Assembly: GCF_000973105.1 (NCBI RefSeq)
Contig: NC_015844.1
Span: 2,538,501-2,602,500, forward strand
Reading direction: 5' to 3'
DNA from: Zobellia galactanivorans
GTDB taxonomy: Bacteria > Bacteroidota > Bacteroidia > Flavobacteriales > Flavobacteriaceae
DNA length: 64,000 nucleotides
The translations under genes and the position numbers were made by a program. Below are positions 43,357 to 60,946 of this stretch, in pieces. The stretch's first letter is position 1; each line of letters begins with the position of its first letter. The notes beneath the pieces were generated by a model. The model searched no databases, was not told the origin of the DNA, and saw only the letters and a program-made list of their open reading frames with translations.

Positions 43357-43478
43357 TTTAAACTAACTCAACAATTAACACAAAAATAAAATTGTGAATG
43401 CTTTACTAAGTGCAACCTGTTTCTTGACAAAATTCACCCTACCCCATATACTGGAGGTAGGGGCAATGTTCTATAAGG

Positions 43479-44399
43479 TTAACGCGCAAAACTATCGACG
43501 GATTTGTAGGCGTCAATAACGGCTTGTTCTCCCTCTTTTCCGGGTCTTGAGTTTCCGTGTTCCATTCCTAAAATACCATTGTAGTTTTTTTCGTGAATGA
43601 ATTTCAAGATATTCCAGTAATTGATTTCTCCTGTCGTAGGTTCATTTCGGCCCGGGTTGTCGCCCATTTGTATATAGGCGATTTCGTCCCAACAGGCTTC
43701 CATATTCGGAAGGAGGTTCCCTTCCTGTATTTGCTGGTGATAGATGTCGAATAAAATTTTACACGAAGGGGAATCTACGGCCTTGCAGATGTCATAGGCC
43801 TGTGGCGAATCGGTCAGGAAGGCTCCTGGATGATTGAAAAAGTTAAGGGGCTCGAGCACCATGGTGAGACCGTGGGGTTCAAAAATTGCCGAGGCCTGTT
43901 TTAGGGTCTCTACTACATGGGCTTGCTGATAGCCTTTCTTTATTTTAGGGGCGAGGTTGCCGGGAACAACGGTCATCCATTTCGCATTGACCCGTTTGGC
44001 CACTTCCACCGATTCTTTACAGTGGGCTAAAAATGCCTTTCTTTTTTCCAGGTCACCGGAAGCTACATGGCCTTCCTTTAAAAAGACGGCTACAAAAACG
44101 CCCATCTCAATACCCCTTTTTTGCATGGTTTGCGCCATTTTTTCCTGTAAGGTGACATCGCGGGTGCGCATTTTATTGTCTTCAAAGGCGGTAAAACCTT
44201 GGTCGGCCATAAAATTCAATTGGTCTATGGGGTCTTTGCCCGCATGGTGTTCGAACATGCCCAAATGAGGGGCATATTTCAGCTTGAATTTATTGGAGGC
44301 TTTTGGATGTGTCGGGGTGGAGGCATAAGATAGTCCAGAACCCATGGTAATCGCCCCTGTGGACAATGCCGCTTTCTGTATAAAATTACGTCTCTTCAT
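43479..44399 (-). CDS. Tat-exported TIM-barrel sugar isomerase/epimerase/lyase-like protein (hydroxypyruvate isomerase-like)
   Basis: From ATG 44399 the 306-residue product starts with a twin-arginine signal (MKRRNFIQKAALSTGA). The barrel belongs to the AP-endonuclease-2-like group that includes hydroxypyruvate isomerase and D-tagatose 3-epimerase. The expected metal ligands are visible: Glu in MVLEPLN, Asp and His in LFDIYHQQ, Gln in IQMGDNPG and Glu in LGMEHGNS. It follows the GMC dehydrogenase and its small subunit after 50 nt. A GMC oxidase with a related TIM-barrel protein performs 3-oxidation and lysis in C-deglycosylation systems, so this may be the lyase or epimerase of an oxidised sugar. 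That role is inferred. Confidence 0.82.
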   Translation of the reverse strand: MKRRNFIQKAALSTGAITMGSGLSYASTPTHPKASNKFKLKYAPHLGMFEHHAGKDPIDQLNFMADQGFTAFEDNKMRTRDVTLQEKMAQTMQKRGIEMGVFVAVFLKEGHVASGDLEKRKAFLAHCKESVEVAKRVNAKWMTVVPGNLAPKIKKGYQQAHVVETLKQASAIFEPHGLTMVLEPLNFFNHPGAFLTDSPQAYDICKAVDSPSCKILFDIYHQQIQEGNLLPNMEACWDEIAYIQMGDNPGRNEPTTGEINYWNILKFIHEKNYNGILGMEHGNSRPGKEGEQAVIDAYKSVDSFAR

Positions 44400-44449
44400 T
44401 TTGGTGTGCTTGCTATGGTGCGGGTCGGTGGTATAAGGTGAATCTTGGT

Positions 44450-45013
44450 TTAAATAGACCAAGCTTTTCCTCCGGTCAACTCTTCTAGGTCGCCGCAGGC
44501 AATATATTGTCCGGGAATGGAATCATAGGCCAGTACTTCCTCGCCTACGTACTCCGTACATTTATAGCCCCAAATGGTCAGCTCCCTTATCTTTTTGGCA
44601 AAGGGTAGGCCCTTGGCTTTTTTGTCGGTAAGGGCCTTCTTCATTACGGGGGCCAGATCAATGGCGGTAAGGTCGCTTATCTTCTCTTTTTTGGAACTGT
44701 TTAAGGCGTTGATGGCCAATTGGTTCAAGGTGGTCTTAAACTGGTCTTGCTGCTTCGGGGGCATGACCTCCTTGGCGAAATGGTCTAAAAATACATGGAC
44801 GTTTACTTCCGAAGCCGAAAGGGTGTCCGTTTTGGGAAGTATACTATCGACCAAACCTATTAGCACAGTACCTTGGTCTTGGCTTAAGAATTTAGGGACC
44901 CAAATGGTTTCCTTTTTGTCATTACAACTTTGTAAAACGCTCATGAATGTCGGTGCGGCAATTACGTAGCCCATTGACATTCCTATCTGCATCAATGCTT
45001 TTCTTCTATCCAT
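44450..45013 (-). CDS. Gluconate 2-dehydrogenase subunit 3-like small subunit, Tat lipoprotein
   Basis: Starting at ATG 45013 (MDRRKALMQIGMSMGYVIAAPTF) gives 187 residues; the ATG overlaps the GMC gene stop by one base (TAATG). The N-terminus combines a twin-arginine motif with a lipobox-like VLQSC (C30). The rest matches gluconate 2-dehydrogenase subunit 3 (LIGLVDSILPKTDTLSASEV; ELTIWGYKCTEYVGEE). Such subunits carry the Tat signal for a leaderless GMC flavoprotein partner and help anchor it in the periplasm or outer face. The tight coupling with the GMC gene supports this. Confidence 0.85.
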   Translation of the reverse strand: MDRRKALMQIGMSMGYVIAAPTFMSVLQSCNDKKETIWVPKFLSQDQGTVLIGLVDSILPKTDTLSASEVNVHVFLDHFAKEVMPPKQQDQFKTTLNQLAINALNSSKKEKISDLTAIDLAPVMKKALTDKKAKGLPFAKKIRELTIWGYKCTEYVGEEVLAYDSIPGQYIACGDLEELTGGKAWSI

Positions 45014-46725
45014 TATATATTTCCTTTTTTGAGTTCTTGTGCTGCGTGATTGGCGGCCCTTGCCGAAAAGGCCATATAGGTCAATGAAGGGTTGACACAA
45101 CTCGATGAGGCCATAAAGGCACCGTCGGTTACGTATACGTTCGGTACTTCGTGTATTTGGTTGTGACCGTTCAGTACCGAAGTTTTGGGGTCCCTTCCCA
45201 TGCGTGCCGTTCCCATTTCATGAATGCCATGTCCCATGTTATAGGAGCTGTTGTGGGTATTGATATCGCGAAAACCGGCCTTTTTTAGCATTTCGGCGGC
45301 CTGAACCACTATGTCTTCACGCATTTTTAGTTCGTTGTCCCTTATTTCGGCATTGAAGGTCACGGTCGGGAGTCCCCATCCATCCAGATTGTCATAGTCT
45401 AGGGTCATGCGGTTGTCTTGATAGGGTAAGATTTCACCAAAGCCCCCTATCCCCATGGTCCACCCGCCAGGTTTTAAGATGGCTTCTTTCAATTCTTGGC
45501 CCATGGTGAGTTCCGCTACGGCATCTTTCCAGTTTTTACGGCTTGCGCTACCTTGATACCCAAAACCGCGCAGATAGTTCGTGCTTTTCGATTTGGCATC
45601 GATGTTCTTAAAACGGGGAATGTATACGCCGCCAGGTCTTCGTCCTTTGTAATATTTGTCCTCAAAGCCATCGAATTTGCCATTGGCCCCTGCCCCTAGG
45701 TGATGGTCCATGATATTTCGGCCTACTTGGTCGGAATCATTGCCCATTCCGTTCGGAAAACGGTCCGATTTTGATTGTAGAAGAATAGAGGCCGAGGCAA
45801 TGGCCGATGCGCACAAGAAAATGACCTTGGCATTGAACACCAACTCTTCTTTGGTCAAGCGGTCGATGACCTTGACTCCGGTCGCTTTTTTTGTGTCGGG
45901 GTCGTACATCACTTCGGTGACGATGGAGTCGGGTCTTAGGGTCAGGTTGCCGGTGCGTTCCGCGGCCGGTAGGGTAGAGGAGTTGCTGCTAAAATATCCA
46001 CCGAAAGGACATCCTCTGGAACAACGGTTCCTGAACTGGCATTTGGTGCGTCCTTCAAATTCCTTGTCGCCCGTAATATGAGCGATCCGCCCCGAGGTAA
46101 CCACCCTTCCGTCTAGGTTTTCATAAACTTTGTCCCTAAAGTGCTGTTCCACACAGTTCAATTCCATCATTGGTAAAAACTGACCGTCGGGCAGTTGTCT
46201 CAGTCCCATTTTTTCACCCGATACACCAATGTAACTTTCTACCTTATCGTACCAAGGGGCAATGTCTTTATAGCGAACGGGCCAATCAACGCCATGGCCG
46301 TCATTTTTATTTGCTTCAAAGTCGATTTCACTCCAGCGGTAACTATGGCGCCCCCAGGTTATGGATCTGCCACCTACATGGTAGCCGCGCATCCAGTTAA
46401 AGGGTTTGGTTTCGTTATATGGGTGTTCCAGATCATTCACGAACCATTTGTACGAATCCGCACTTCTGCCTTTGTTGGTCCGACTCTGTTTGGGGCGCTT
46501 TGCCTTTTCGGCAATAGAAAGCTCACCGCCAAATTCAAAGTCCCAATCATCCATATGGGCCGTAGTGTAATCTTTTATGTGTTCCACCATTCTGCCCCTT
46601 TCGAGCATTAAGGTCTTTAGTCCGTTTTCGCACAATTCCTTGGCGGCCCAGCCTCCGCTGACACCCGTACCTACAACAATGGCATCATAGGAACTTTGTT
46701 CTTCGTTAAAATAAAATTTGCTCAT
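45013..46725 (-). CDS. GMC family FAD-dependent sugar dehydrogenase, large subunit
   Basis: The 570-residue protein has an N-terminal FAD-binding motif (AIVVGTGVSGG, residues 15-25), no signal peptide and the GMC C-terminal active site (HGIHEMGTARMG; then VTDGAFMASSSCVNPSLT). C229-x5-C235-x3-C239 (CQFRNRCSRGC) falls where bacterial FAD-glucose dehydrogenases carry cluster-binding cysteines, so a small Fe-S cluster is possible. The family includes glucoside 3-dehydrogenases and gluconate-type dehydrogenases passing electrons to cytochromes. It is probably exported folded, piggyback on the Tat-borne subunit. No cytochrome c gene is next to it. Oxidation of a sugar hydroxyl is the likely reaction; which carbon is unknown. 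Confidence 0.88.
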   Translation of the reverse strand: MSKFYFNEEQSSYDAIVVGTGVSGGWAAKELCENGLKTLMLERGRMVEHIKDYTTAHMDDWDFEFGGELSIAEKAKRPKQSRTNKGRSADSYKWFVNDLEHPYNETKPFNWMRGYHVGGRSITWGRHSYRWSEIDFEANKNDGHGVDWPVRYKDIAPWYDKVESYIGVSGEKMGLRQLPDGQFLPMMELNCVEQHFRDKVYENLDGRVVTSGRIAHITGDKEFEGRTKCQFRNRCSRGCPFGGYFSSNSSTLPAAERTGNLTLRPDSIVTEVMYDPDTKKATGVKVIDRLTKEELVFNAKVIFLCASAIASASILLQSKSDRFPNGMGNDSDQVGRNIMDHHLGAGANGKFDGFEDKYYKGRRPGGVYIPRFKNIDAKSKSTNYLRGFGYQGSASRKNWKDAVAELTMGQELKEAILKPGGWTMGIGGFGEILPYQDNRMTLDYDNLDGWGLPTVTFNAEIRDNELKMREDIVVQAAEMLKKAGFRDINTHNSSYNMGHGIHEMGTARMGRDPKTSVLNGHNQIHEVPNVYVTDGAFMASSSCVNPSLTYMAFSARAANHAAQELKKGNI

Positions 46726-46760: not shown

Positions 46761-48263
46761 TTATTCTAAGCCGATACGAAAAACGTAGGCCGCCTCGCAA
46801 GGCTTTTGGCCATCAACGGAAATGGATAGGCCTTTAGAGGTCTGCTTCCATTTGATGTCGTTTTTGCCGCTTATGAATTCTACCGATTTAATTCGTTTTG
46901 ATGTATTGGGATTGTTTTTTGAAAGGGATTTAATATTGAATTTGCCATCTTTTGGCCAACCCAATGCCGTAGCATATAGGGTTTTTCCTTTGGTGGTAAA
47001 GCGAAAGTCTTCGGGGCCGGATTCTTTATTGTTCTTTTCGGAATGATGACCCGTTTCAACTTTCGTAGGGCCCTCGCCAAAGATGGTCCAGGGTCGGGTG
47101 TCGTATATGGCTTCGCCGTTAAGACTCAACCATTGGCCCATTTCGTTCAATATTTTTTGAGCTTCATCGGGAATGGTGCCATCTGCCTTCGGACCTATGT
47201 TCAACAACAAACATCCGTTTTTGCTTACGATGTCTATCAATTCGTCGAGGAGGTAGTTTGAAGTCTTGTATTCTTCATTGGTAACATATCCCCAAGAAAT
47301 CTTTCCTATGGAAGTATCGGTCTGCCACGGGTATTTGAAGATCCCGTCCATACGGCCGCGTTCAATATCGAGTACTATCAGGTCTTCGGGAAAGGATTTG
47401 TTTCTCATGTTCTTGTTTTGAAAAACAACGCCTTTGTTCCATTCTTCGCCCTTATTGTAGTAATAGGCAAGTATTTTTTTATGCACGACCTCAAAACCGG
47501 GTTTGTCCAATCCGAAATCGAACCAGAGCAAATCGGGCTCATAATTGTCAATGATATCGGTGGTACGGTTCCACCAAAGGTTCAGGAATTTTTTAGTGGG
47601 TAGGGTATCATTGCCTATGGGCTCGCCGTACAGGTCGTAAAACTCCGGATTATTGGTGTCCCAGGTCGGGTCGTCCTTACGGTAATAGACCCTGTGGCGG
47701 GCAAAGTGGGAGGATACCCCGAACTTCATTCCCTTGGCCTTGACCGCATCCGACAACATACGCATAACGTCTTTTTTCGGGCCTGTATCCTTAACGTTCC
47801 AGCGCGTGTGCTTAGAAGCGTACATGGCATAGCCGTCATGGTGTTCGGCAACCGGTACTACATAGCGGGCCCCTGCATTTTTAAATAGGGCGGCCCATTC
47901 CTCTGCGTCAAATTTCTCCGCTTTAAAATCAGGTATAAAGTCTTTATAGCCGAATTTCGAGGGGTCGCCATAATGGGCCCTATGGTAGGTGTAGGGCTTT
48001 TTGCCGCCTTTTGACCATTTTTCGTCATAGATACCTCTGGGGTATTTTTCACTGCTGTAAGCGGGTACGGCATAGGGGCCCCAATGCAGGAAAATACCGA
48101 ATTTGGCATCCCTGAACCATTCGGGAATCTCATATCCGGCGCGTATCGATTCCCATTCGGCTTGGAATTTTTTCGGTTGAAGTTGGGCGTGTAGTGCGGT
48201 AATCCCCATGAACAATAAAAGGGTCATGGCTACTTGGCTTACAAATTTGTTTTTTGTTGTCAT
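46761..48263 (-). CDS. GH29 alpha-L-fucosidase
   Basis: The 500-residue secreted enzyme (signal TLLLFMGITALHAQ) shows GH29 landmarks: WFRDAKFGIFLHWGPY (about 49-64), VAEHHDGYAMY (139-148), and LLWFDFGLD with likely nucleophile D249. Retaining GH29 enzymes release terminal alpha-L-fucose. A C-terminal beta-sandwich starts near residue 400. It is encoded 14 nt downstream of a sulfatase, consistent with action after desulfation of fucose residues. The general acid/base residue is not obvious by eye, as usual in this family. Confidence 0.93.
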   Translation of the reverse strand: MTTKNKFVSQVAMTLLLFMGITALHAQLQPKKFQAEWESIRAGYEIPEWFRDAKFGIFLHWGPYAVPAYSSEKYPRGIYDEKWSKGGKKPYTYHRAHYGDPSKFGYKDFIPDFKAEKFDAEEWAALFKNAGARYVVPVAEHHDGYAMYASKHTRWNVKDTGPKKDVMRMLSDAVKAKGMKFGVSSHFARHRVYYRKDDPTWDTNNPEFYDLYGEPIGNDTLPTKKFLNLWWNRTTDIIDNYEPDLLWFDFGLDKPGFEVVHKKILAYYYNKGEEWNKGVVFQNKNMRNKSFPEDLIVLDIERGRMDGIFKYPWQTDTSIGKISWGYVTNEEYKTSNYLLDELIDIVSKNGCLLLNIGPKADGTIPDEAQKILNEMGQWLSLNGEAIYDTRPWTIFGEGPTKVETGHHSEKNNKESGPEDFRFTTKGKTLYATALGWPKDGKFNIKSLSKNNPNTSKRIKSVEFISGKNDIKWKQTSKGLSISVDGQKPCEAAYVFRIGLE

Positions 48264-48277
48264 TCTGAATTTTGGCT

Positions 48278-49855
48278 TTAATTCTTTTTCTTCTTTTTGA
48301 TAATGCCAATTTCAGGACGAGGTATGTTTTCCGATGCCCCTCTCATAACGTAAGGTTCCCATTTTTTTCGGGCCTTTTGCCATTCTTGAAGCGTTTTTGT
48401 AGGATACCATGCAGGCCAGCCTATACGGTTAAAATCGTAATTTTTTTGGTTTTTGGCGACCCATTCGTCCACTGTTGAAAATGGATTCTTATCAGGAAAA
48501 ATGCCAATGGCCTTGAACTCATCGCTAACACCTTGGTCTTTGATCACGTTGGTGCGCCAGTTCTGAAGTTCGGCCAATAGCTCTTTTTTCACAGGGCCAT
48601 ATTCGGGATTATCGGCTACATTCTCTACCTCATATGTGTCTTTTCCTAGATCATATAGTTCGATTTCGGGTTTTACGGGTGCAAAGAAGGCGGCCTGCTC
48701 GGGCGTAAGTTCGCCTTTTAGGTACATGATGCTCATTTCTGCCAATACGGGGTAGGCGTTTTCCTTGTATTGGTTGTACTGTAAGTATGGTCTTTCAGGC
48801 ATCAGATTGAGAATGAGCTTGTAGTCTTTTGATCGTATGGAACGCATGGCATCATGGGTTTCGTCCATTTTGTCACGGGCGGCAAAAACGTATTTTCGTT
48901 TTTTAATGGCTTCCCCTAGAAGGTTTTTTCCGTGTAAGGGAAGCGGAGGGGTAACATGGGCCGCATCAAGTATGGTGGCATCAATATCCAAAGACATGAC
49001 CAGGTCGTCGCTTACCTGACCGGGTTCTACTTGGCCTGGCCACCGCATGATCATAGGGATACGGGTACCGCCATCGTATAAAAATTGTTTGCCCCGAATG
49101 TGGCAACGGCCATGGTCGCCTATAAAAAATACAATGGTATTATCGGCCAAGCCTTCATCTTCTAGTCGCTTTAACAAGGCGCCTACTTCGCGGTCTACCA
49201 ATTGCATTTGTTCCAGTCCGTTGGCCCAATCACGGCGAACAAAGGGCGTGTCGGCATAATAGGGAGGGAGCTCAACGTCTTTAATGTCGATAGGTCTTTC
49301 GGGATCGCGCTTCCACGAACGGTGGGTTCCGCTAAAGGTGATTCTTGCAAAAAATGGTTGGCCCGGATTGCGATCGGCCCAGTCGTTGGTGTTCATAAAG
49401 AGCTCTTCCTTGGTGTCGGGCAAAAAGTTCATGTCGGTTTTCCAACTCATTAAAGTGGTGAAATACCCAGCCTCTTCTAAGAGTTTAGGAATGGGTTTTA
49501 TACCGTAGGGCAAGGCTTCTTTGTTGTGCTCACGGTGTTGGTTGGCGCCAATGTAGTTTTGGTGGAAACCGGTCATCATGGCGGAGCGCGAGGTCGAACA
49601 AACGGGAGAGGTCGTAAAGGCCTTGTTGTAGCGAATGCCCTCGGCCGCCAATTGGTCTACGTTAGGGGTGTAAATGCCCTTTGTGCCGTAACAGGAAAGA
49701 TCAGGACTCCAATCCTCAATGGTAATCCATAAGATATTGGGGCGGGTGTCGCTCGTTTCCTTTTGGGCCTTTTTTTTGGTATCTCCGCACGAGGCGAACA
49801 TAAGAAGGCAGGAAGATAAAATGGGGAACACAGTTTTTTTTACCGAAGGAATCAT
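48278..49855 (-). CDS. Sulfatase S1 family with CSTSR site and Glu-Asp metal pair
   Basis: The 525-residue lipoprotein (lipobox LMFASC, C23) has E47-D48 in TIEDWSPD, formylglycine signature C86-S-T-S-R90 (Thr in place of Pro) and GDHGRCH, with His where Asn is usual. The GKWH motif is replaced by K139-T-D141. The LPPYYADTPFVRRDWANGLEQMQLVDREVG stretch parallels the 26091-27581 sulfatase, which shares the Glu-Asp pair and K-x-D. The Thr in the signature is unusual but seen in this sulfatase group to my knowledge. It precedes GH29 by 14 nt and follows the TIM-barrel hydrolase after 105 nt, where an internal promoter could lie. Confidence 0.88.
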   Translation of the reverse strand: MIPSVKKTVFPILSSCLLMFASCGDTKKKAQKETSDTRPNILWITIEDWSPDLSCYGTKGIYTPNVDQLAAEGIRYNKAFTTSPVCSTSRSAMMTGFHQNYIGANQHREHNKEALPYGIKPIPKLLEEAGYFTTLMSWKTDMNFLPDTKEELFMNTNDWADRNPGQPFFARITFSGTHRSWKRDPERPIDIKDVELPPYYADTPFVRRDWANGLEQMQLVDREVGALLKRLEDEGLADNTIVFFIGDHGRCHIRGKQFLYDGGTRIPMIMRWPGQVEPGQVSDDLVMSLDIDATILDAAHVTPPLPLHGKNLLGEAIKKRKYVFAARDKMDETHDAMRSIRSKDYKLILNLMPERPYLQYNQYKENAYPVLAEMSIMYLKGELTPEQAAFFAPVKPEIELYDLGKDTYEVENVADNPEYGPVKKELLAELQNWRTNVIKDQGVSDEFKAIGIFPDKNPFSTVDEWVAKNQKNYDFNRIGWPAWYPTKTLQEWQKARKKWEPYVMRGASENIPRPEIGIIKKKKKN

Positions 49856-49960: not shown

Positions 49961-51403
49961 TTACGAATAAAAATCGGAAATGATGTGTCTGGCCCCTTTT
50001 TCATAATCCCATAAATAATCGCCGGTAGCTTCGACACACTTTTGACTGATATGGTGCGGAAGTACCGAAACCAAGGGGTATCCTATTTTTGACTTGAACA
50101 TTTCCAAATGCTTCAAGTATTTTTCTTCGGTAATATCATTTTCGGCATTTCCCCCAATATGGTCAAGGTTGATACCACGGCCGGGAGAAGATTTATATGA
50201 GATTTCATAATGTGTCTTTACACGTGCGGGCCAGTCGTATTTATCGTTGAGCCATACATCGTTGGTACGGGTAACATCGGTGAATTTGGTAAAGAAAATA
50301 TCGGGGACGTGGAATTCCATTTCAATGGAGGGGTCAATGCCTTTTGCTGCTTTGTACAGTTCTTTGTGTATGTGGAGCATGTCTGATTTGGTGTTGTACG
50401 ACATATCAATTTTAAATTTCCGTACCCCCATTTTATGAAAGCGGTGAATGGTCTCCGAAGCGTATTCGAAAATGTCGGCCTTGGGGTTCAACCATCGCAC
50501 GCCTTTGTCGTATTCCGTTTTGCCTTGGGCCCGATAGGCTCCCAAGAGGTTCGGGTTGTTCTGGGCCGCGATACTTGAGGCGTGTATTTTAGGAAAGCCT
50601 ATCCATAGACCGGGCGTAAACCCTTTTTCGTTTATAAGGTCCATGGTCTTTCTAAAATCGGGAAATTTTTTGGGGTCGGGATGCCATGAGCCGTAGCCGG
50701 AGTTGAGACTGCCGTCGGGAAATTGGCCCCAACCGTGATCCAAGGTCATTTTTCCCTTGGGAAATCCGTATTCGATAACTTTGTCTAAATACTTCGCTAC
50801 AAAGTCGTGATTCAGTAGATTAAAATGCCCTTTGGGAACATTGGATTGTATCTTCTGCTCTACCCAGGTGCAATATTCCACATCGGCCCAAAAGTGGGGA
50901 AACACTTTATAAGGCTGAATGTTCAGGCGGTGCATCATTTGGGTATTGTACGTCTTCCACGCTTCATCGCCCTTACCGCTTTCATCCACAAAAAGTTCCT
51001 GTCCCTCGGGAACGTTTATGGTCAGGGTTTCTTTTCCGTCGAAACTAAAGGTAGAATTTTCAAAACCGAAGGTGGTCATAAAACCCACGAACTTACCGGC
51101 AGCGTCTCTGATAACCGGCGAACCGCTCATTCCACTAGCCGGAATGGTGAAGGGATTGTGGGTAAAGGCATCGCTTTGAAAGTAATAGGCATCACCACCT
51201 TTTTGGGCTGCGGTGCCATTGCTGTTATAGGGACAAAACAATGGTTTGGTGACTTTTATTTTTACCTGTTCCCCTTCAACCTTATCGTTTTTGTTCAAAA
51301 CCTCATAGTGTGTAGAGGTGGCTTGTGCCGCCAATGGGCCTGAAACTCCTGCAAGGGCAATACCCATACCTGCTTTTTTTATAAAATCTCTTCGGTTGTT
51401 CAT
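49961..51403 (-). CDS. Tat-exported clan GH-D-like TIM-barrel glycosidase (GH31/GH36/GH27-like), putative
   Basis: The ATG at 51403 gives 480 residues with a twin-arginine signal (MNNRRDFIKKAGMGIALAG). An N-terminal beta domain (about 40-150) precedes a TIM barrel with TLDHGWGQFPDG (220-231), GFTPGLWIGFPKIH, KFKIDMSY with candidate nucleophile D333, and TRTNDVW with candidate acid/base D382. These resemble clan GH-D enzymes (alpha-galactosidases, alpha-glucosidases). It does not match a family well enough by eye for a GH number. It starts 7 nt after the propeller gene stop, so the pair probably works together. Confidence 0.65.
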   Translation of the reverse strand: MNNRRDFIKKAGMGIALAGVSGPLAAQATSTHYEVLNKNDKVEGEQVKIKVTKPLFCPYNSNGTAAQKGGDAYYFQSDAFTHNPFTIPASGMSGSPVIRDAAGKFVGFMTTFGFENSTFSFDGKETLTINVPEGQELFVDESGKGDEAWKTYNTQMMHRLNIQPYKVFPHFWADVEYCTWVEQKIQSNVPKGHFNLLNHDFVAKYLDKVIEYGFPKGKMTLDHGWGQFPDGSLNSGYGSWHPDPKKFPDFRKTMDLINEKGFTPGLWIGFPKIHASSIAAQNNPNLLGAYRAQGKTEYDKGVRWLNPKADIFEYASETIHRFHKMGVRKFKIDMSYNTKSDMLHIHKELYKAAKGIDPSIEMEFHVPDIFFTKFTDVTRTNDVWLNDKYDWPARVKTHYEISYKSSPGRGINLDHIGGNAENDITEEKYLKHLEMFKSKIGYPLVSVLPHHISQKCVEATGDYLWDYEKGARHIISDFYS

Positions 51404-51410
51404 GTTCGTG

Positions 51411-53123
51411 CTATTCTTGAAGTGTGAGTGTTTGGGTAAAAGTTTCAACGGTACGTCCGTTTGAGCTGATGGTGTTTTTTAGGGTATAGGTGGTCCCTTT
51501 TTGCAGATGGACCTTGGTCGTGAGGCTAACTGTTGTAGATTGAAAGGGTTTTATGGAATCTAGCGCTCCTGAGGCCAACTCCGTTTCTTTTCCGTTCTCA
51601 ACAAGGGTTATGGCGATATGGGCGGATGAGGATGCGACTTGCCCGAAATTTTCGACTTTTACGCTTAGGTCGTATTCGCTTGTGGTTTTTGTGAAGACCG
51701 GGGCCCGAGAAGAAAGAATGGGGGTGATGTATTGAACTTCGGGTAAACGTGCATAGCCAAAGAGCAGTTCCCCGTTTTTGTCCTTCCCCAATAATTTTCC
51801 AGCGAAATTTTCGTCGGTAAGGCCATTGCCTTTTCCTTCAAAAATGAGGATAAGGTCATCTCCCGATTTTTCCGTACGTGATAATTTACTTCCTTTTCCG
51901 AAATTTACTTCTTCAGAGGCACCAAAACGTAACGAACCTAAATCAATATCGCTATGTGGGTCAAAATCGTTTTCCGCCTCAATTTTAAGCTTGATTTCTT
52001 TTGTATTGGAAGTGATTTTTTTGGTGTTTAGAACGGTCAACAACTTTTCCTTTCTAAGGGGCACGACAATGAGTTTTGAACTGTGATTATCCTTGGGGAG
52101 GTCTTCGTATTTTAAGGTGTCGATTACCGCAAAGTTGGCGGCAATGGCCCTTCCTTTTTCATCTTGTAGTATACGGATACGTTCGTATTTGTGCCAACCT
52201 TCCTTAGTACCGTCTTTATGGACGGAAATACCAGGCGTATAGGCTTCCCCGGGGTCTACCTTCCAGTTCACGCCATCTTTAGAGCGAAGGTACCACGCAA
52301 TCCTGCCCAACCAATCGTTGACGATGAGGTGGTACTGTACGTGGTCTTTCCAGACGACGGGGTCTTCATACTTGCCTTCCACTGGGGGGTAAACCGATTT
52401 TTCGCCTACCATGTTCCAGGTGGCCAGGCCATCTTTGCTGAACCAAGGGTAGCCATGGCGGTTTATCATTAAGAAGGAGCCGTCTTCGCGTTGGGCAAAG
52501 GTGCAATTGTGCATGAAATTGGAAGCACTCGAGGTTTTGCGGTCCCGTTTGTCGAATTCAAATTGTCCTTCTCGCCACGGGCCGTTAATGTGTTGCGCTA
52601 CATAGTATTTATCGGTCACGTAAAGAACATATCGTCCTTTTTTGGTTACGTACCATGTGGGATTGTGTCCATGGCCTACTTCGCCGGCAATTTTGAAAGG
52701 ACCGAAAGGAGATTCCGAAACACCGTGTACCACACGGCTGTTAGGGTAGGCCATATGCCCTTTTTCTGCACTTTCTGGCCAACGGCAAACGAACAAATGG
52801 TATTTTCCATCTTCCTTTTCGAGCAAGGTATTGCCTCCCCAATAGGACCAAAGCGGACTTTCAACGCCATTGTTGATGTCTCTAGGGATGACATTGGGGG
52901 AGCCCCAAGTATCGGAAGTCCTTCCCCCGAGATCGGGCATGGGTAAAAAACGGTCCATAAAACGGCCTCCCCAAACGAGCTTGTCCCAAGCTGCCGGACG
53001 CTCCCTTTTTACGACCATTTCGTGGGCTTTCTTTTTTTGTTTTTTTGAAGGGGTACTTTGTTGTGCCTCAATTGATGAAATATTGAGAATTGCGAAGGCA
53101 AGGAGAAGGTGACTGAGTTTCAT
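51411..53123 (-). CDS. Secreted five-bladed beta-propeller protein (GH43/GH117-like fold) with C-terminal Ig-like domain
   Basis: The 570-residue protein has a signal peptide (LLLAFAILNISSIEAQ) and a propeller-like region (about 50-350) with repeated blade motifs: SYWGGNTLLEKEDGKYHLFV, HNPTWYVTKKGRYVLYVTD, NCTFAQREDGSFLMINR and YEDPVVWKDHVQYHLIV. This resembles GH43/GH32/GH117-type five-bladed glycosidases or phosphorylases. The C-terminal part (about 450-570) looks like a CARDB/Ig-like module. I cannot fix a family or catalytic triad. In this context it is likely a glycosidase for a sugar other than fucose or alpha-galactose. Confidence 0.6.
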   Translation of the reverse strand: MKLSHLLLAFAILNISSIEAQQSTPSKKQKKKAHEMVVKRERPAAWDKLVWGGRFMDRFLPMPDLGGRTSDTWGSPNVIPRDINNGVESPLWSYWGGNTLLEKEDGKYHLFVCRWPESAEKGHMAYPNSRVVHGVSESPFGPFKIAGEVGHGHNPTWYVTKKGRYVLYVTDKYYVAQHINGPWREGQFEFDKRDRKTSSASNFMHNCTFAQREDGSFLMINRHGYPWFSKDGLATWNMVGEKSVYPPVEGKYEDPVVWKDHVQYHLIVNDWLGRIAWYLRSKDGVNWKVDPGEAYTPGISVHKDGTKEGWHKYERIRILQDEKGRAIAANFAVIDTLKYEDLPKDNHSSKLIVVPLRKEKLLTVLNTKKITSNTKEIKLKIEAENDFDPHSDIDLGSLRFGASEEVNFGKGSKLSRTEKSGDDLILIFEGKGNGLTDENFAGKLLGKDKNGELLFGYARLPEVQYITPILSSRAPVFTKTTSEYDLSVKVENFGQVASSSAHIAITLVENGKETELASGALDSIKPFQSTTVSLTTKVHLQKGTTYTLKNTISSNGRTVETFTQTLTLQE

Positions 53124-53137: not shown

Positions 53138-53887
53138 TTATTTCATTAATTTTTGGATATCGGCATCCAGTGCTTTGAACATTAGTAAATGTCCTTCTGC
53201 ATTGGGGTGCAGGTAATCGGGCATAAGTTCTTTGTTGACCTTTCCACTCTCGTCAACATATTTAGAGCTGATATCTATATAATGGATTTTTGAATTCTTT
53301 TTTGGGAAGGATGAAATCAGCTTGTTCGTAGCCTTGTTGATATTATCTCTGTGATTAGGTTTGTACCCATAGGGAAGAATGCCCATGAGGAGAATCTCGG
53401 TATTCGGTAGTTTTTGGGTCAATAGACTACATATTTTGTAAATACCATCGCCCAGTTCTTCTGGGGTGCTTATGTTTAAATAATGGTTGCCGTCCGTATT
53501 ATTTGTACCTATAAGTACAATGGCTACTTTTGGATTGATACCTTCTAAGGTGCCATTTTCGATGCGCCATATGACATTCTCGGTACGGTCACCGCTGATG
53601 CCCATATTGACGGTGCGGTAGCGATCTAAGTACTTGGTCCAAACCTCTTTTCGGTCTTCTTTTTCCAACGTGTGAAAAATGGAATTGCCCACCAAAATCA
53701 GTTCGGGGTCAGATTTAAGTCGACTTTTAATAGTCTCGTGCCGTTTGTTCCACCATTCACCTTCTAGTTGAACGGATTGGGCTGCCGGGTTTTCCTTTTG
53801 AGAACCAAGTTTCGTACTAGAACATGATGCTAGTAGGTATATGAGTAAGAGGAGTAGGGTGTGACCGGGTTTGATTTTGTTAAGCAT
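53138..53887 (-). CDS. SGNH/GDSL hydrolase lipoprotein
   Basis: The 249-residue lipoprotein (lipobox YLLASC, C22) has SGNH blocks: S69 in LVGNSIFHTL (block I, with Asn where GDS is usual), NMGISGDRTENVIWRIENG (block II), LIGTNNTDG with N129 (block III) and D224/H227 in DYLHPNAEG (block V). The pattern resembles the PAF-acetylhydrolase-like group that includes carbohydrate esterases. It may remove acetyl or other acyl groups from the polysaccharide. It lies in a tight operon (17 and 14 nt gaps). Confidence 0.87.
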   Translation of the reverse strand: MLNKIKPGHTLLLLLIYLLASCSSTKLGSQKENPAAQSVQLEGEWWNKRHETIKSRLKSDPELILVGNSIFHTLEKEDRKEVWTKYLDRYRTVNMGISGDRTENVIWRIENGTLEGINPKVAIVLIGTNNTDGNHYLNISTPEELGDGIYKICSLLTQKLPNTEILLMGILPYGYKPNHRDNINKATNKLISSFPKKNSKIHYIDISSKYVDESGKVNKELMPDYLHPNAEGHLLMFKALDADIQKLMK

Positions 53888-53904
53888 AATAGTTCAACTT
53901 GGTT

Positions 53905-55488
53905 TTAAACTTTTTTTTGAACGGGGCCAATACCATTTTCCCAGTTTTCATTGCATTCCTTAAAAAGTGTCGCTTTTAATTTTTCAGTTGTTTCAGGATG
54001 CTCTTGGGCCAAATCATTTACTTCTTCGTAATCATCGGGTAGATAATAGAGCTGAAAAACATCTGCCTTCAGAAAATATCGGAGCTTCCATCCTTCTTGG
54101 GTGACCAAGGCGGGACCCATTTTAGAGCTATAAACCGTATAATCACGGAGTTTAGGCGTGCCGCCGAATAGTACCTGTGCATAAGAAACCCCATCTTTTT
54201 CATCGCGCTGGGGCACACCTACGATCTCGGCTAGGGTATTCAAAAAGTCATAGTTACTTACCATTTGGTCCGAAACCGTACCGGCTTTTATGTGGTCTTT
54301 CCAGTACCAGAATAGGGGAACGCGAACCCCGCCTTCCCAGTTGTCACGTTTTTTTCCCGACATACCGTCATTGCCGTCAAAAATATCACCGGCAACGCGA
54401 CTGTTGAAGCGTGTGGTGATATTATCAAATTCTTCTCCTTTTACGTTGACGTTGTTTTTTGAGGTACGCCCTTTTTCGGGGTAGTAAATTTCATGTCCGT
54501 TGTCGGAAGTAAAGACAATGATAGTGTTGTCAAGAATTTCCATTTCTTCGAGTTTGGAATAAATTCGGCCCACATCGTCATCCAACATCTTTACCATAGA
54601 AGCATATTCTTTTTCCCATTGGGTCAAGTTGGGGTTATTGGCTAATTCAGGATGTACCTCGGGAACCATGGTCGGCCCGTGGGGCAACTGTGTAGGGAAA
54701 TAGATAAAGAAGGGTTTGTTTGTTTTTTGGGGGTGGTTAGCTTCCATAAAACCCAACATTTTTTCCATGATAATATGCTCCGAATAGACGGCCTTACCTT
54801 CCATATTCCACCGATCCTTAAAATTTTCGGAAGAGTCGTATTCCGTGGTTTTGGCACAATCGACATGGGTGTTTCCTGGGATGTCGACTTTTTTGCCGTT
54901 CTCAAAAAGGAAAGGGGGGTAAAAACCATGGCACCGAAGATGGTCGTAATACCCAAAATGATGGTCCCAACCATGACGTTCCATACGTTCGGGAGTGGTG
55001 GCAAAACCCCATTCCAATTTTCCGAACTGCCCTGTGGTATAGCCTGCCTTTTGCGCAATTTCACCCAAGAACACCTCGCCTTTTTCGGCCGGAAGGGCTA
55101 CTTTGTGGATTTTAGCCTTGATTTCTTCCAGGGTGAGCCCATTATCCAATTCCTTATAGATGCCCGCTTTTACAATGGTCATGGCATCACCCCCATGGCA
55201 GTCGTGCATTCCGGTCAATAGGCTGGCCCTTGCTGGGGCACAATACATGGCGCCGTAGGCCCTTTCAAATTGCATGCCTTGCGAGGCTAACTTGTCAATA
55301 TTGGGCGTAGTCAACATCTTTTGCCCGTAGGTGCCTAACATGCCACGGCCTAGGTCATCGGCGTAAATAAGCACAATGTTGGGCTTCTTTATCTTTTTTT
55401 GGGCTTGGCACTGGGGTACGTTCCACAGGATGAACAGCAGCTGGATAAAGAGAAGTTTTGTGGTATACAATAGTGGTGGCCGGTTCAC
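53905..55488 (-). CDS. Sulfatase S1 family (arylsulfatase A-like)
   Basis: The 527-residue secreted protein (hydrophobic signal KLLFIQLLFILWNVPQCQAQ) has D44-D45 in IYADDLGRGM, formylglycine signature C83-A-P-A-R87 (ASLLTG) and TSDNGHE. The GKWH motif is replaced by GKLEWG. An insertion containing HDCHGGDAMTIVKAG and ERHGWDHHFGYYDHLRCHG gives a His-rich region not seen in the other eleven. The family assignment is firm; the substrate is unknown. Part of the module A operon (18 nt after the next sulfatase upstream). Confidence 0.92.
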   Translation of the reverse strand: MNRPPLLYTTKLLFIQLLFILWNVPQCQAQKKIKKPNIVLIYADDLGRGMLGTYGQKMLTTPNIDKLASQGMQFERAYGAMYCAPARASLLTGMHDCHGGDAMTIVKAGIYKELDNGLTLEEIKAKIHKVALPAEKGEVFLGEIAQKAGYTTGQFGKLEWGFATTPERMERHGWDHHFGYYDHLRCHGFYPPFLFENGKKVDIPGNTHVDCAKTTEYDSSENFKDRWNMEGKAVYSEHIIMEKMLGFMEANHPQKTNKPFFIYFPTQLPHGPTMVPEVHPELANNPNLTQWEKEYASMVKMLDDDVGRIYSKLEEMEILDNTIIVFTSDNGHEIYYPEKGRTSKNNVNVKGEEFDNITTRFNSRVAGDIFDGNDGMSGKKRDNWEGGVRVPLFWYWKDHIKAGTVSDQMVSNYDFLNTLAEIVGVPQRDEKDGVSYAQVLFGGTPKLRDYTVYSSKMGPALVTQEGWKLRYFLKADVFQLYYLPDDYEEVNDLAQEHPETTEKLKATLFKECNENWENGIGPVQKKV

Positions 55489-55506
55489 TTGTGGGGCTTT
55501 TTTTGA

Positions 55507-57027
55507 TTACTTGGAAAGGATTGAATTCGGGGGCAGGGGCACCCTGTTCATTTTACGCCAGGCCACGAGTTCATCGAGCAGGGCCTTGGCGGTTTTTGGC
55601 TGTTCCTTGGCCAAGTTGCTCGCTTCCCTTGGGTCGTTCTGTAAATCGTATAGTTCGAGCCTTCCATCGGCCAAAAATTGGATCAGTTTGTACTTCCCCT
55701 TACGGATGACCGAACAGGTACCATGCTTGTATTGGCTGGCCAAATGCCAGAACAAGGGGCGTTTTTTAAAACTGTTCTTGTCTTTTTGAAATAGGGGCGT
55801 AAGGGAATTTCCATCTAGTTGCCCAGTGTAATCTACATGGGCAACATCCATTAGTGTCGGAAAATAATCGGTAACCGAAATAGGAATCTCCGTTCTACGG
55901 GCTTTTACCTTGCCGGGCCAATGAATTAAGGCGGGAACTTTTATTCCTCCTTCATAAATTTCCCCTTTGGAACCTCTTAACTTTAAATTCTCGGAGGCAA
56001 TACCGTGATAGCCATTATCGGAGGTAATGATAATCAATGTATTTTCTTCTAAATTATTCTTTTTGAGGTATGTTATGATTCTACCGATATTCTCGTCCAT
56101 AGACTGTACCATGGTGGCGTAACTGGCCATCCGTTCTTTGTTTTTGCCTATACCTTGTCCCGTTATGGGGTCGCCGGGTTTGTTCATGTATTTATCAAAG
56201 AGCTCATCGTTTCTGTTCTTTATGGGACGATGTACCGCATAGAAATGAAGGTTGATCAAGAACGGGGCGTTTTTATGGTTGTCCATAAATTCAATGGCAT
56301 CGCTGGAAAGTCGGTCCGTGAGCCATTCATCATCGGGTTTTGGGGATATAAACGGATTGCTGAACGGGGCGCGATACCCTCCACGTTCACTTTTGTAGCC
56401 TCCTTCTTCTAGGGCCGGGTCTCCGCGAAATGTACCGCCGACGTTTTTGATAAAGCCCCTGCCTTCGGGGTAGTATTGTTTTACGGCTGGTGTCTTATGG
56501 TTCTCTACCCAAGTGAAATCCCCAGGTCGAGGTTGATCCAATTTTTGCTGGATGGGCCAGTTCATGGCCAGTTCTTTTTCAGGATAGGGCCCTACAATAT
56601 GCCATTTCCCTAAGTGAATGGATTGGTAACCTGCGGCAGCAAGGGCTTCTGCATAGATGGGATGTTCCTTTCCGACCGTCCAACGAGAGAAGATATTTTC
56701 TTGGGCATCTCCTTTCTCCAATACGGGAACGGTGTACACCCCGGTCCGGAATGATTGTTTCCCGGTGAAAAGGGCGGCTCTTGAAGGCGAGCAGGTAGGA
56801 TACATATAGGCATTATCGAATACCAAGCTTTCCTTGGCCAACGCATCTAGTGCCGGGGTTTCGAAATAAGTGGAGCCGTTGAAGCCGACATCGGCATAAC
56901 CGAGGTCGTCTACAAGAACAAAAATGATATTAGGTTGTTTTTCTTGGGCCCAGCTGAACCCAAAAGACATTAGAAATAGCAATGACAGAAAAAAAGAGCC
57001 CTTTTTTAGAAGCATGGTGCCAAACAT
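55507..57027 (-). CDS. Sulfatase S1 family
   Basis: The 506-residue secreted enzyme begins immediately after the upstream stop codon (TAA then ATG); Met5 (57015) would give a better-shaped signal peptide (MLLKKGSFFLSLLFLMSFG). It has D40-D41 in LVDDLGYADVGF, formylglycine signature C79-S-P-S-R83 (AALFTG), GKWHIV and TSDNGYHG; YAVHRPI supplies a further active-site His. It is most like the 27601-28941 sulfatase in this window (PTCSPSRA and the ADVGF region). Confidence 0.92.
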   Translation of the reverse strand: MFGTMLLKKGSFFLSLLFLMSFGFSWAQEKQPNIIFVLVDDLGYADVGFNGSTYFETPALDALAKESLVFDNAYMYPTCSPSRAALFTGKQSFRTGVYTVPVLEKGDAQENIFSRWTVGKEHPIYAEALAAAGYQSIHLGKWHIVGPYPEKELAMNWPIQQKLDQPRPGDFTWVENHKTPAVKQYYPEGRGFIKNVGGTFRGDPALEEGGYKSERGGYRAPFSNPFISPKPDDEWLTDRLSSDAIEFMDNHKNAPFLINLHFYAVHRPIKNRNDELFDKYMNKPGDPITGQGIGKNKERMASYATMVQSMDENIGRIITYLKKNNLEENTLIIITSDNGYHGIASENLKLRGSKGEIYEGGIKVPALIHWPGKVKARRTEIPISVTDYFPTLMDVAHVDYTGQLDGNSLTPLFQKDKNSFKKRPLFWHLASQYKHGTCSVIRKGKYKLIQFLADGRLELYDLQNDPREASNLAKEQPKTAKALLDELVAWRKMNRVPLPPNSILSK

Positions 57028-58572
57028 TTATTCGGTTTTTTTAATGTACTTGAGCGGGGCGATACGTTTGCCTGTTTTGTAGTCCAGTCGCTTACCGTAA
57101 TAGATGTAGTTGTCAAAGATATCTCCTTGTCCCAATGTTCGGGGGTCGCCCTGTGCTATGAGTTCAGTTTCCATTTGGGTACGAAGCTTTGTAATGACCT
57201 CGGCATTTTCAGGTCGGTCGGCCAGGTTATCGATGCAATGCGGGTCTTTTTGAATATTGTAAAGTTCGTGCTCCGGTCTCTTATCAAAATTCATCTCAAA
57301 GAAGTGATATTCGTCATCATCCGGTTTTAGGGAAGTGATATAACTCTTGGTAGGCGAACCATCGGTATTCATAAAACCATATTCCGGATTGCCAACGGGC
57401 CATCTTTCGGGTTTTATGTTGTGAACGTATAAGAGGGAGTCGTTTCTAATGGCCCTTACGGGATAGGCAAGGTTGGTGCCATCTTCATTGGCCCGGCCCA
57501 CATCGTGGCGTTCCTTACCTAAAAGAACGTGATCTCTACTAGAATCGATCCGACCGGATCGAGAATCGAAAAGTTGCTTTGTAATACTGCTTCCCGTCAT
57601 TTGCGGATGGGGCGTTTCCCCGACTACTTCCATAAAGGTAGGGGCTAGATCTGAAAAGCTGACGAAATCGCTCACGGTACGCCCAGAGATAATCTTGCCC
57701 TTCCAATATGCGATGAGTGGAACATGGAAACCTTCTTCGTAAATCTGGCCTTTTACCCTTGGAAAGGGCATACCGTGATCAGAAGTGATTAGAACCAAGG
57801 TGTTTTTCAAGAGTCCCTTTTTCTCCAGGATCTTTATGGCCTTCCCTACATGGGTGTCGAACCATTCCACCTCATTGGCATAGTCGAGCAGGTCGCCGCG
57901 AATAATTTCGTTGTCGGGGTAAAAAGGGGGAACGTCGGCTTCCTCTAGTTTGCGACCGGCTTTTTTCCAAGAATCCAATTCGTAAAAACGATGGGGTTCT
58001 TTGGTTCCCAACCAAAAACAAAAGGGAACGTTCTTGGGGTTTTCGTTTAGAAAGGCCTCGAAATTTGAGGCATAGTCAACATCGGTGATTCCCTTATAGG
58101 GGGGCTCGAGTTTAATGGTGTTGTATTCAGGTCCGGCGGGGTTGTCTTTGGTGTCGTAAACGCCAGGTCCCCAGCCTTTACCCGTATATCCTACGCGATA
58201 ACCTTTTTGGGCCAGTAGCTGCGGATAGGTTTTGAATTCCAGCGGAAAACGCCCGTTGTGATCGGTGGCCTCTTTCAACTGCCAACTGTACTTGCCCGTT
58301 AAGATACAGGCCCTTGCCGGTGAACATTTGGGATTGCCGTTATATGCATTTTCAAAAACCGTACCCTCTTTGGCCAAGCGGTCGATGGCCGGGGTGTTGA
58401 TGAAGGTGTCGCCATAGGCGCCAAAACTCTTCATGGAGGCATCGTCCGCAATACAGAATAAGATGTTCGGGCGTTCGGGCGGTGTACTTGGCGGGTTCGC
58501 GCTAAGTGAGAGCATCCCGACAATACCGAATTTGAGGATAGATTGCAGAAATTGAAAAGTATATGTTATCAT
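57028..58572 (-). CDS. Sulfatase S1 family
   Basis: The 514-residue secreted protein has a rather weak signal (FQFLQSILKFGIVGMLSLSA). D43-D44 lie in IADDASMKSFG, the formylglycine signature is C83-S-P-A-R87 (ACILTG), and GKGWGPG stands where GKWHLG is usual. TKEPHRFYE and TSDHGMPFPRVKG complete the site, with His replacing Asn. The C-terminal part contains HELYNIQKDPHCIDNLADRP, the standard sulfatase tail. It is the first sulfatase of module A, 60 nt after the small SusD-linked lipoprotein gene. Confidence 0.91.
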   Translation of the reverse strand: MITYTFQFLQSILKFGIVGMLSLSANPPSTPPERPNILFCIADDASMKSFGAYGDTFINTPAIDRLAKEGTVFENAYNGNPKCSPARACILTGKYSWQLKEATDHNGRFPLEFKTYPQLLAQKGYRVGYTGKGWGPGVYDTKDNPAGPEYNTIKLEPPYKGITDVDYASNFEAFLNENPKNVPFCFWLGTKEPHRFYELDSWKKAGRKLEEADVPPFYPDNEIIRGDLLDYANEVEWFDTHVGKAIKILEKKGLLKNTLVLITSDHGMPFPRVKGQIYEEGFHVPLIAYWKGKIISGRTVSDFVSFSDLAPTFMEVVGETPHPQMTGSSITKQLFDSRSGRIDSSRDHVLLGKERHDVGRANEDGTNLAYPVRAIRNDSLLYVHNIKPERWPVGNPEYGFMNTDGSPTKSYITSLKPDDDEYHFFEMNFDKRPEHELYNIQKDPHCIDNLADRPENAEVITKLRTQMETELIAQGDPRTLGQGDIFDNYIYYGKRLDYKTGKRIAPLKYIKKTE

Positions 58573-58632: not shown

Positions 58633-59097
58633 TTACTTATTGAATTCCGAAATGATCAAGCTCCAGATGACCTTGGTGCCATCCGCTGCGGTAACTTCGT
58701 AGTTCATGTCACCTTTGCCGAAATCGGCTATTTCACCGAGGGCAGGGGCGCCATTTGAAGGGGCCAATGTAGCAGCCGTGGATATGTCGGCATAACCGAC
58801 AATGGCCGAAAGGCTTACTTGCGAACGGATTTCCTCTGGAAAATCGCTACTGGCAGGGGGAACCGATATGATGCAGGCGACTTTTTGATTCACGGTGTCT
58901 ATGGTCGCTTCCGTATCAAGTTGAACTACTTGGAGGCGATTGTAGTCTTGGGTGTCATCTATCCACCTATATTCAAATCTGAAATTGGTGATTTCGGCTT
59001 CGCTAAATGCAGGTAGCTCCTCTAGGTCGGATTTCAGGCAAGAGGTCATTGTAAGACCTACAAACAGAAACATCAAGTATTGTATATGTTTTTTCAT
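58633..59097 (-). CDS. Small surface lipoprotein, DUF5018-like, possible glycan-binding partner of SusCD2
   Basis: The 154-residue lipoprotein (lipobox TMTSC, C20) has a single beta-rich domain: AEITNFRFEYRWIDD, VNQKVACIISVPP, SQVSLSAIVGYADISTAATLAPSNG and the C-terminal VTAADGTKVIWSLIIS. This pattern is typical of DUF5018-type Ig-like modules found after SusD in Bacteroidota loci. It lies 28 nt downstream of susD. It is probably displayed at the surface and binds glycan or stabilises the transporter. It contains no catalytic motif. Confidence 0.7.
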   Translation of the reverse strand: MKKHIQYLMFLFVGLTMTSCLKSDLEELPAFSEAEITNFRFEYRWIDDTQDYNRLQVVQLDTEATIDTVNQKVACIISVPPASSDFPEEIRSQVSLSAIVGYADISTAATLAPSNGAPALGEIADFGKGDMNYEVTAADGTKVIWSLIISEFNK

Positions 59098-59125
59098 CGT
59101 ATGTGATTTAATATGGTGCGTTAAT

Positions 59126-60928: not shown

Positions 60929-60946
60929 TACTAACTTTTTTTTGAA

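What the first reader, a model, noticed from the sequence alone, without database searches (positions are those of the whole stretch)
43479..46725. Exported oxidative trio (GMC dehydrogenase, Tat subunit 3, Tat TIM-barrel) inside a sulfatase locus
Seen: a leaderless GMC flavoprotein, a small subunit with Tat motif and lipobox whose ATG overlaps the GMC stop, and a Tat-signal TIM-barrel with a full set of isomerase/epimerase metal ligands, in tight order after GH29. Known: GMC plus subunit-3 pairs form periplasmic sugar dehydrogenases such as glucoside 3-dehydrogenases, and in C-deglycosylation a GMC-type 3-oxidase is followed by a TIM-barrel lyase of this superfamily. Inferred: the locus may oxidise a sugar hydroxyl so that a glycosidic bond or sulfate leaves by elimination, or epimerise a released sugar. 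I know of no described sulfated-polysaccharide pathway using this.
Basis: partly seen in the sequence, partly recalled or inferred. Interest (0 to 1): 0.72.

Follow-up and report, generated by a model that had tools for sequence, protein, structure and literature searches.

The report
Sugar-oxidising module in seaweed-sulfatase operon
A marine seaweed-degrading bacterium carries, at the end of a long gene run for sulfated polysaccharides, an exported enzyme set that probably oxidises one hydroxyl of a sugar and rearranges the product; the enzymes are of known kinds, but their repeated presence inside sulfatase loci points to a little-explored oxidative step in algal polysaccharide breakdown.

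Summary
On the minus strand GMC (45013-46725), its Tat/lipobox partner (44450-45013, ATG sharing one base with the GMC TAA) and a Tat TIM barrel (43479-44399) end a 20.5-kb same-strand run of SusCD, sulfatase and GH29 genes in a Zobellia genome. GMC has the catalytic His, Asn and the Cys triad that binds [3Fe-4S] in FAD glucose dehydrogenase; the pair matches FAD-GO/GlycDH glycoside 3-dehydrogenases, down to the ATG/TAA overlap. A paralogous trio sits in a core-genome cluster with 3-keto-disaccharide hydrolases and a Gfo/Idh oxidoreductase. The sulfatase-locus GMCs form one clade; all 14 examined lie among sulfatases. An eliminase-like barrel (SPIE2) occurs in 3 of the 14 sulfatase loci and in core clusters; one sister locus also has a 3-keto-disaccharide hydrolase. 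Best reading: periplasmic C3 oxidation of a terminal sugar, then isomerisation of the keto product. Enzyme kinds are known; their placement in sulfatase loci was not in the papers my searches listed. No activity is shown.

The parts
45013..46725 (-). GMC flavoprotein, predicted FAD/[3Fe-4S] glycoside 3-dehydrogenase catalytic subunit; C229/C235/C239, H502, N545
   Evidence: Pfam, PDB alignments, motif invariance in 116 of 116 rows
44450..45013 (-). Sub3: Gluconate_2-dh3 family Tat partner (hitchhiker) with lipobox; ATG overlaps GMC TAA by one base
   Evidence: Pfam, sequence
43479..44399 (-). TIM: Tat-signal xylose-isomerase-like TIM barrel, predicted keto-sugar isomerase/epimerase; E183, D218, Q244, E280
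   Evidence: Pfam, model with mean pLDDT 82.4, Foldseek, profile search, ligands
43437..43462 (-). terminator-like hairpin after TIM (9 pairs); a second one, 43327-43352 followed by TTTT, read by eye
   Evidence: 26 terminator-like sites found in 9 kb against 13.2 expected, so weak alone; sequence
46761..48263 (-). GH29, closest solved relative exo-alpha-L-galactosidase 7ljj (1.6e-127)
48278..49855 (-). sulfatase (Sulf_g), closest solved relative S1_8A 9bb9 (1.1e-105)
49961..53123 (-). Tat-signal 495-aa protein and 570-aa protein; neither has a Pfam match over its cut-off
53138..58572 (-). GDSL esterase (53138-53887) and three sulfatases (53905-55488, 55507-57027 nearest S1_16, 57028-58572)
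58633..63982 (-). DUF5018-related protein (58633-59097), SusD-like (59126-60928) and SusC-like (60947-63982) frames at the head of the run; the SusCD names are by size, order and comparison by eye, not by a family search

Best explanation
GMC and Sub3 form a periplasmic, lipid-anchored FAD/[3Fe-4S] glycoside 3-dehydrogenase. The leaderless GMC folds with its cofactors in the cytoplasm and is exported on Sub3's Tat signal (hitchhiking); electrons leave through the iron-sulfur cluster to a cytochrome or quinone rather than directly to O2. It oxidises the equatorial C3-OH of a terminal pyranose (most likely galactose, L-galactose or fucose) exposed after sulfatases and GH29 have trimmed the oligosaccharide, or of the released sugar. 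The co-exported TIM barrel then moves a proton next to the ketone (epimerisation or isomerisation, as in YcjR or ketose 3-epimerases), and the product feeds the genome's core 3-keto-glycoside cluster. Shown by sequence: anatomy, family, cofactor motifs, gene order, conservation, paralogy to the core trio. Inferred: position 3, substrate, electron acceptor, TIM reaction, link to the core cluster.
For: GMC best PDB matches are fructose and glucose dehydrogenase large subunits; its CX5CX3C aligns with the [3Fe-4S] ligands of B. cepacia glucose dehydrogenase. Tat partner gene, ATG/TAA overlap and the GI-H-EMGTAR context equal those of FAD-GO, which oxidises equatorial C3-OH of pyranosides (PMC4650693). 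Zobellia clade-A AA3 proteins are 53-58% identical to FAD-GO (PMC6950322 section 11). The core paralogue lies with two PF06439 3-keto-disaccharide hydrolases, a Gfo/Idh oxidoreductase and further barrels in L065; the window's genome has this cluster with one PF06439. Sister sulfatase locus L006 reads GMC, Sub3, TIM, SPIE2, PF06439-esterase fusion. TIM fold and profile: 3ngf, 1k77, ketose 3-epimerases, YcjR.
Against: No assay. No CXXCH protein among window frames of 90 aa or more, so the electron acceptor is not local. TIM is missing after Sub3 in 5 of 14 sulfatase loci, so it is not strictly needed. TIM scores far below every NCBIfam cut-off (125 against 353 bits for the best). FAD-GO papers call the enzyme oxidoreductase/oxidase-like; acceptor not established here. 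Substrate guesses rest on nearest solved relatives only.
Confidence: 0.6

Rival explanations
1. One reading: C3 oxidation followed by beta-elimination of the glycosidic bond (or a sulfate) by the window's own TIM barrel.
For: GMC oxidase followed by a TIM-barrel lyase is known for C-glycosides (PMC12724307 abstract) and O-glycosides (PMC10628242 sections 7 and 8).
Against: TIM lacks the catalytic His (Leu185 in 37 of 37) and its profile matches none of the C-glycoside deglycosidases that SPIE2's does. Only the best 50 of 351 Foldseek matches with E<=0.001 were shown, none named deglycosidase.
Confidence: 0.12
2. Elimination or hydrolysis of the 3-keto glycoside does occur in this pathway, but by SPIE2 and PF06439 proteins encoded in the core cluster (window strain) or in the locus (L006, L011, L014), with TIM handling the released keto sugar.
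For: SPIE2 profile matches C-glycoside deglycosidases at 4e-11 to 7e-5 and has invariant E184-x-H186; L006 order.
Against: SPIE2's closest match is the uncharacterised 4ovx (1.2e-109); the His that the deglycosidases have on the last-but-one strand aligns with Ser, so its activity is unsure. PF06439 and SPIE2 are absent from 11 of 14 sulfatase loci within the DNA held.
Confidence: 0.35
3. The trio is an ordinary spare copy of the core glycoside/monosaccharide oxidation module, unrelated to the sulfated substrate and merely parked at the operon's end.
For: The same trio is widespread in core genomes without sulfatases; FAD-GO is broad in specificity.
Against: One 100/100 clade of 14 GMCs found among sulfatases in Zobellia, Kriegella, Arenibacter, Cellulophaga and unnamed relatives although neighbouring genes differ; GMC-Sub3 kept in 14 of 14.
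Confidence: 0.15

Closest known systems
FAD-GO / GlycDH glycoside 3-dehydrogenases (Rhizobium GIN611, A. tumefaciens C58, Stenotrophomonas, Sphingobacterium)
   Same: GMC flavoprotein with the same catalytic-His context, downstream Tat partner, ATG/TAA overlap in A. tumefaciens and S. maltophilia (PMC4650693 section 16); operon with TIM barrels in A. tumefaciens (PMC10628242 section 7)
   Different: there the neighbours are barrels and an oxidoreductase, not sulfatases; substrates tested were plant glycosides
Direct-electron-transfer FAD glucose/fructose dehydrogenases
   Same: three [3Fe-4S] Cys and a small hitchhiker subunit (PMC6719666 passages)
   Different: no cytochrome c gene next to it; intersubunit-disulfide Cys213 is Gln here
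YcjR, E. coli 3-keto-D-glucoside 4-epimerase (6wn6)
   Same: same fold (Foldseek 2e-12; profile 1.2e-6); acts on a 3-keto glycoside by its title
   Different: 18% identity; cytosolic E. coli protein by recall, here Tat-exported
CGE/OGE beta-eliminases (DgpB/C, DfgA/B, AtOGE 8BVK)
   Same: same superfamily; partner of a 3-oxidising enzyme
   Different: the window TIM lacks the catalytic His; SPIE2 of sister loci is the nearer relative
Lambda-carrageenan PUL of Pseudoalteromonas distincta U2A
   Same: S1_8 sulfatases and GH110 enzymes; relatives lie in this window
   Different: a hydrolase/sulfatase cascade; the word oxidoreductase does not occur in its main text (PMC12549532)

Membership tests
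FAD-GO / GlycDH glycoside 3-dehydrogenase | catalytic His in the GI-H-EMGTAR context (mutagenesis primer of PMC4650693, translated by eye) | tested here: met
   H502, invariant in 116 of 116 rows
FAD-GO / GlycDH glycoside 3-dehydrogenase | downstream Tat partner whose ATG overlaps the TAA stop | tested here: met
   TAATG at 45013; literature
FAD-GO / GlycDH glycoside 3-dehydrogenase | high identity to a characterised member | tested here: inconclusive
   53-58% reported for Zobellia clade A; I had no FAD-GO sequence and cannot say that this copy is one of those rows
FAD-GO / GlycDH glycoside 3-dehydrogenase | C3 oxidation of pyranosides | not testable with these tools
   needs assay
Direct-electron-transfer FAD dehydrogenase complex | three [3Fe-4S] cysteines | tested here: met
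   C229, C235, C239
Direct-electron-transfer FAD dehydrogenase complex | hitchhiker small subunit | tested here: met
   Sub3, PF13618, Tat motif
Direct-electron-transfer FAD dehydrogenase complex | multihaem cytochrome c subunit in the operon | tested here: not met
   no CXXCH in window frames of 90 aa or more
C-/O-glycoside beta-eliminase (CGE/OGE), for the window TIM | catalytic His two residues after the first metal ligand | tested here: not met
   Leu185 in 37 of 37; literature
C-/O-glycoside beta-eliminase (CGE/OGE), for SPIE2 of sister loci | E/H-x-H plus Asp, His, Glu metal site | tested here: inconclusive
   E184, H186, D213, E284 invariant in 19 of 19; the further His aligns with Ser
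Hydroxypyruvate isomerase (NCBIfam TIGR03234) | curated score cut-off | tested here: not met
   125 against 353 bits
Keto-sugar isomerase/epimerase barrel (YcjR, ketose 3-epimerase) | fold and two-Glu metal site | tested here: met
   the third ligand is Gln as in 1k77/3ngf
Keto-sugar isomerase/epimerase barrel (YcjR, ketose 3-epimerase) | activity on a 3-keto sugar | not testable with these tools
   needs assay
Part of the sulfatase PUL operon | same strand and short gaps with SusCD, sulfatases, GH29 | tested here: met
   gaps -38 to 105 bp from SusC to TIM
Part of the sulfatase PUL operon | co-transcription | not testable with these tools
   supplementary RNA-seq tables were not available

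The most novel reading that the evidence does not exclude
Some marine Flavobacteriaceae degrade a sulfated galactan or fucan through a 3-keto route built into the sulfatase locus: terminal residues that glycosidases cannot remove are oxidised at C3 in the periplasm, then cleaved by elimination or by a 3-keto-glycoside hydrolase and isomerised, so that sugars leave without a classical glycosidase. Locus L006, with dehydrogenase, Tat partner, isomerase, eliminase-like barrel and a 3-keto-disaccharide hydrolase in one row beside sulfatases, would be the complete version and the window a shorter one that borrows the rest from the core cluster.
Probability: 0.3. Interest if true: 0.75.

Novelty: new variant of a known kind. 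Interest (0 to 1): 0.5.

Why it matters
The lambda-carrageenan cascade I read releases its sugars by hydrolases and sulfatases alone, and in the kappa/iota-carrageenan work oxidation is described for the freed anhydrosugar. A conserved, exported oxidation-isomerisation module inside sulfatase loci would add a redox branch, could explain how awkwardly linked or substituted residues are released, and would tie polysaccharide use to periplasmic electron transport. It also gives a concrete, testable role to the AA3 enzymes of Zobellia, which a 2019 comparison left as candidates for further work.

Tried and rejected
TIM as the C-glycoside lyase: rejected. Pocket residues as a marker of the sulfated substrate: P108 and H499 are in all 11 sulfatase-locus GMCs first aligned and in none of the other 105 rows, but a pattern for the H499 motif hit 14 of 397 Flavobacteriaceae genomes, the window's own included. 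Of the 13 other loci fetched, 6 are sulfatase loci (3 of them repeats of loci at hand) and 7 are not (L112, L115, L116, L118-L121; GMC 56-64% identical to the window's), and L118/L119 carry both residues in a core cluster. Idea dropped. First tree: its very long outgroup fell on the side of the sulfatase-locus rows, so it could not show a clade; I repeated it with nearer outgroups and three more loci. TIM in viral contigs: none. Published PUL numbers: PUL26/27 'of unclear function' respond to Laminaria and FCSP (PMC9296495 passages), but I could not map the numbers to this window. PMC12502800 opened: its '3-keto' compounds are bile acids.
Full report
WHERE. The window is C1:2538501-2602500 of a 5,521,712-base, one-contig genome. 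The nearest named loci are Zobellia (GMC 94-99% identical); from memory the size fits Z. galactanivorans DsijT, which I did not prove. A hybrid two-component regulator lies just upstream of the SusC-like gene (L088:410-4525).

ANATOMY. On the minus strand SusC-like, SusD-like, DUF5018-related, three sulfatases, a GDSL esterase, two proteins without a family, an S1_8-like sulfatase, GH29, GMC, Sub3 and TIM follow with gaps of -38 to 105 bp. TIM is 140 bp from the next sulfatase frame (209 bp from its likely ATG at 43269), with hairpins between. The trio is thus probably the end of a 20.5-kb transcript; co-transcription was not tested.

GMC AND SUB3. GMC best matches fructose and glucose dehydrogenase large subunits in the PDB. 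C229, C235 and C239 align with Cys212, Cys218 and Cys222, the [3Fe-4S] ligands of B. cepacia glucose dehydrogenase; the disulfide-forming Cys213 is Gln here (fructose dehydrogenase alignment; PMC6719666 passages). The triad, H502 and N545 are invariant in 116 of 116 aligned rows. The Tat partner gene, the ATG-over-TAA overlap and the GI-H-EMGTAR context are those of FAD-GO glycoside oxidoreductases (PMC4650693, passages and sections 13 and 16), which need an equatorial C3-OH on a pyranose and are broad in aglycone. That Zobellia AA3 proteins resemble FAD-GO is in print (PMC6950322 section 11); the window's genome has five GMC places by this query.

TIM. Profile and model point to the hydroxypyruvate-isomerase-like proteins 3ngf and 1k77, D-tagatose/psicose 3-epimerases and YcjR. 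Ligands E183, D218, Q244, E280 are invariant in 37 of 37 aligned rows. It lacks the catalytic His of AtOGE (PMC10628242 section 8). It is below all NCBIfam cut-offs, so its exact reaction is unknown.

CORE PARALOGUE. Of 217 relatives found in GTDB genomes the best 80 were kept, and these 80 were typed by neighbourhood; the other 137 were not seen. Ten (L005-L014, 82-99% identical) lie in sulfatase loci; 70 (L015-L084, 73-79%) do not, and most share a core cluster. In L065 this holds the trio, a second GMC, a Gfo/Idh oxidoreductase, a nucleoside-type permease, two more barrels and two 3-keto-disaccharide hydrolases. An SPIE2 frame lies next to the GMC match in 63 of the 70. The window's genome has such a cluster at 2.23-2.25 Mb: GMC 75%, Sub3 50%, TIM 62% identical to the window's, SPIE2, permease, Gfo/Idh, second GMC, a barrel and one PF06439 gene; it has 15 PF06439 places in all. 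This company is the main reason to assign 3-oxidation.

SULFATASE-LOCUS CLADE. Sulfatase frames (blastp to the window's) occur in 10 of 10 sulfatase-locus rows and 1 of 70 others; Fisher p 7e-12 is descriptive only, since rows are related and 17 of the 70 loci are shorter than 21 kb. In a tree of 47 hand-picked rows (14 sulfatase-locus, 19 core, 8 second GMCs, 6 more distant) the 14 are one side of a 100/100 branch with the distant rows on the other side. An earlier tree of 51 rows also set 11 of them apart from 39 others at 100/100, but with its distant outgroup on their side. TIM directly follows Sub3 in 9 of 14 (window, L005-L008, L010, L014, L114, L122); SPIE2 is in 3 of 14 (L006, L011, L014); 4 of 14 (L009, L012, L013, L117) have neither in the DNA held. 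Neighbours vary, yet GMC-Sub3 stays. In L006 the row is GMC, Sub3, TIM, SPIE2 and a PF06439-esterase fusion: much of a 3-keto pathway inside a sulfatase locus.

SPIE2. Its profile retrieves the uncharacterised 4ovx (1.2e-109), then C-glycoside deglycosidase subunits at 4e-11 to 7e-5 along with epimerases; the Foldseek list mixes the same groups. E184-x-H186 is invariant in 19 of 19, but a His conserved in the two deglycosidases shown aligns with Ser. It is the better eliminase candidate, and it is not in this operon.

SUBSTRATE. GH29 is nearest to exo-alpha-L-galactosidase, one sulfatase to S1_8A, one to S1_16; the neighbouring SusCD locus has two proteins with GLAA-B domains, which I take as GH110. 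S1_8A is described as galactose-2-sulfate-specific (PMC12549532, passages and Discussion). This suggests a galactose-containing sulfated polysaccharide, on weak evidence.

LITERATURE. Nine full-text searches bore on this; one search was for the hitchhiker subunit. By title and abstract start, none of the papers listed places a GMC/subunit-3/TIM module in a sulfatase locus. AA3 does appear in the legend of a carrageenan-PUL comparison (PMC5698469 section 11), so AA3 genes near such loci have been seen. Subscription papers are not covered; I recall, and did not read, a 2024 paper on a broad 3-keto glycan pathway in gut bacteria. NCBIfam has glycoside/disaccharide 3-dehydrogenase families (BT_2158, BT_2159), to which the core Gfo/Idh is only weakly similar.

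VERDICT. A real, conserved and well-bounded module of known enzyme kinds in a place I found undescribed. The dehydrogenase half is well supported (about 0.85); the barrel as isomerase/epimerase less so (about 0.5).

Noticed in passing
window 19242-21515: One 757-aa protein joins a sulfatase domain to an SMP-30/gluconolactonase domain, an unusual fusion in the same sulfatase region.
   Followed up: no
L085:6464-10766 and L086:7944-11324 (own genome, about 0.21 and 3.68 Mb): Two 98%-identical GMC copies (32% to the window's), each followed by a PF13618 partner; one sits 154 bp after a sulfatase, the other is followed by a further TIM barrel.
   Followed up: partly
window 49961-51448 and 51411-53123: A Tat-signal protein with barrel-like sequence and a propeller-like protein, neither with a Pfam match over cut-off, conserved in most sulfatase loci seen; possibly new glycosidase families.
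   Followed up: no
L115, L116, L120, L121: A further, more distant GMC-Sub3 pair (57-60% to the window GMC) in a repeated neighbourhood with a 396-403-aa and a 313-336-aa gene before it.
   Followed up: no
L114:16555-17541: Di-haem cytochrome c peroxidase (MauG-type) frame near the trio in one sulfatase locus; a possible but untested redox partner.
   Followed up: no
window 11877-12929: Protein of 350 aa with an HSDR_N domain (type I restriction R-subunit N-terminus), apart from the polysaccharide genes.
   Followed up: no
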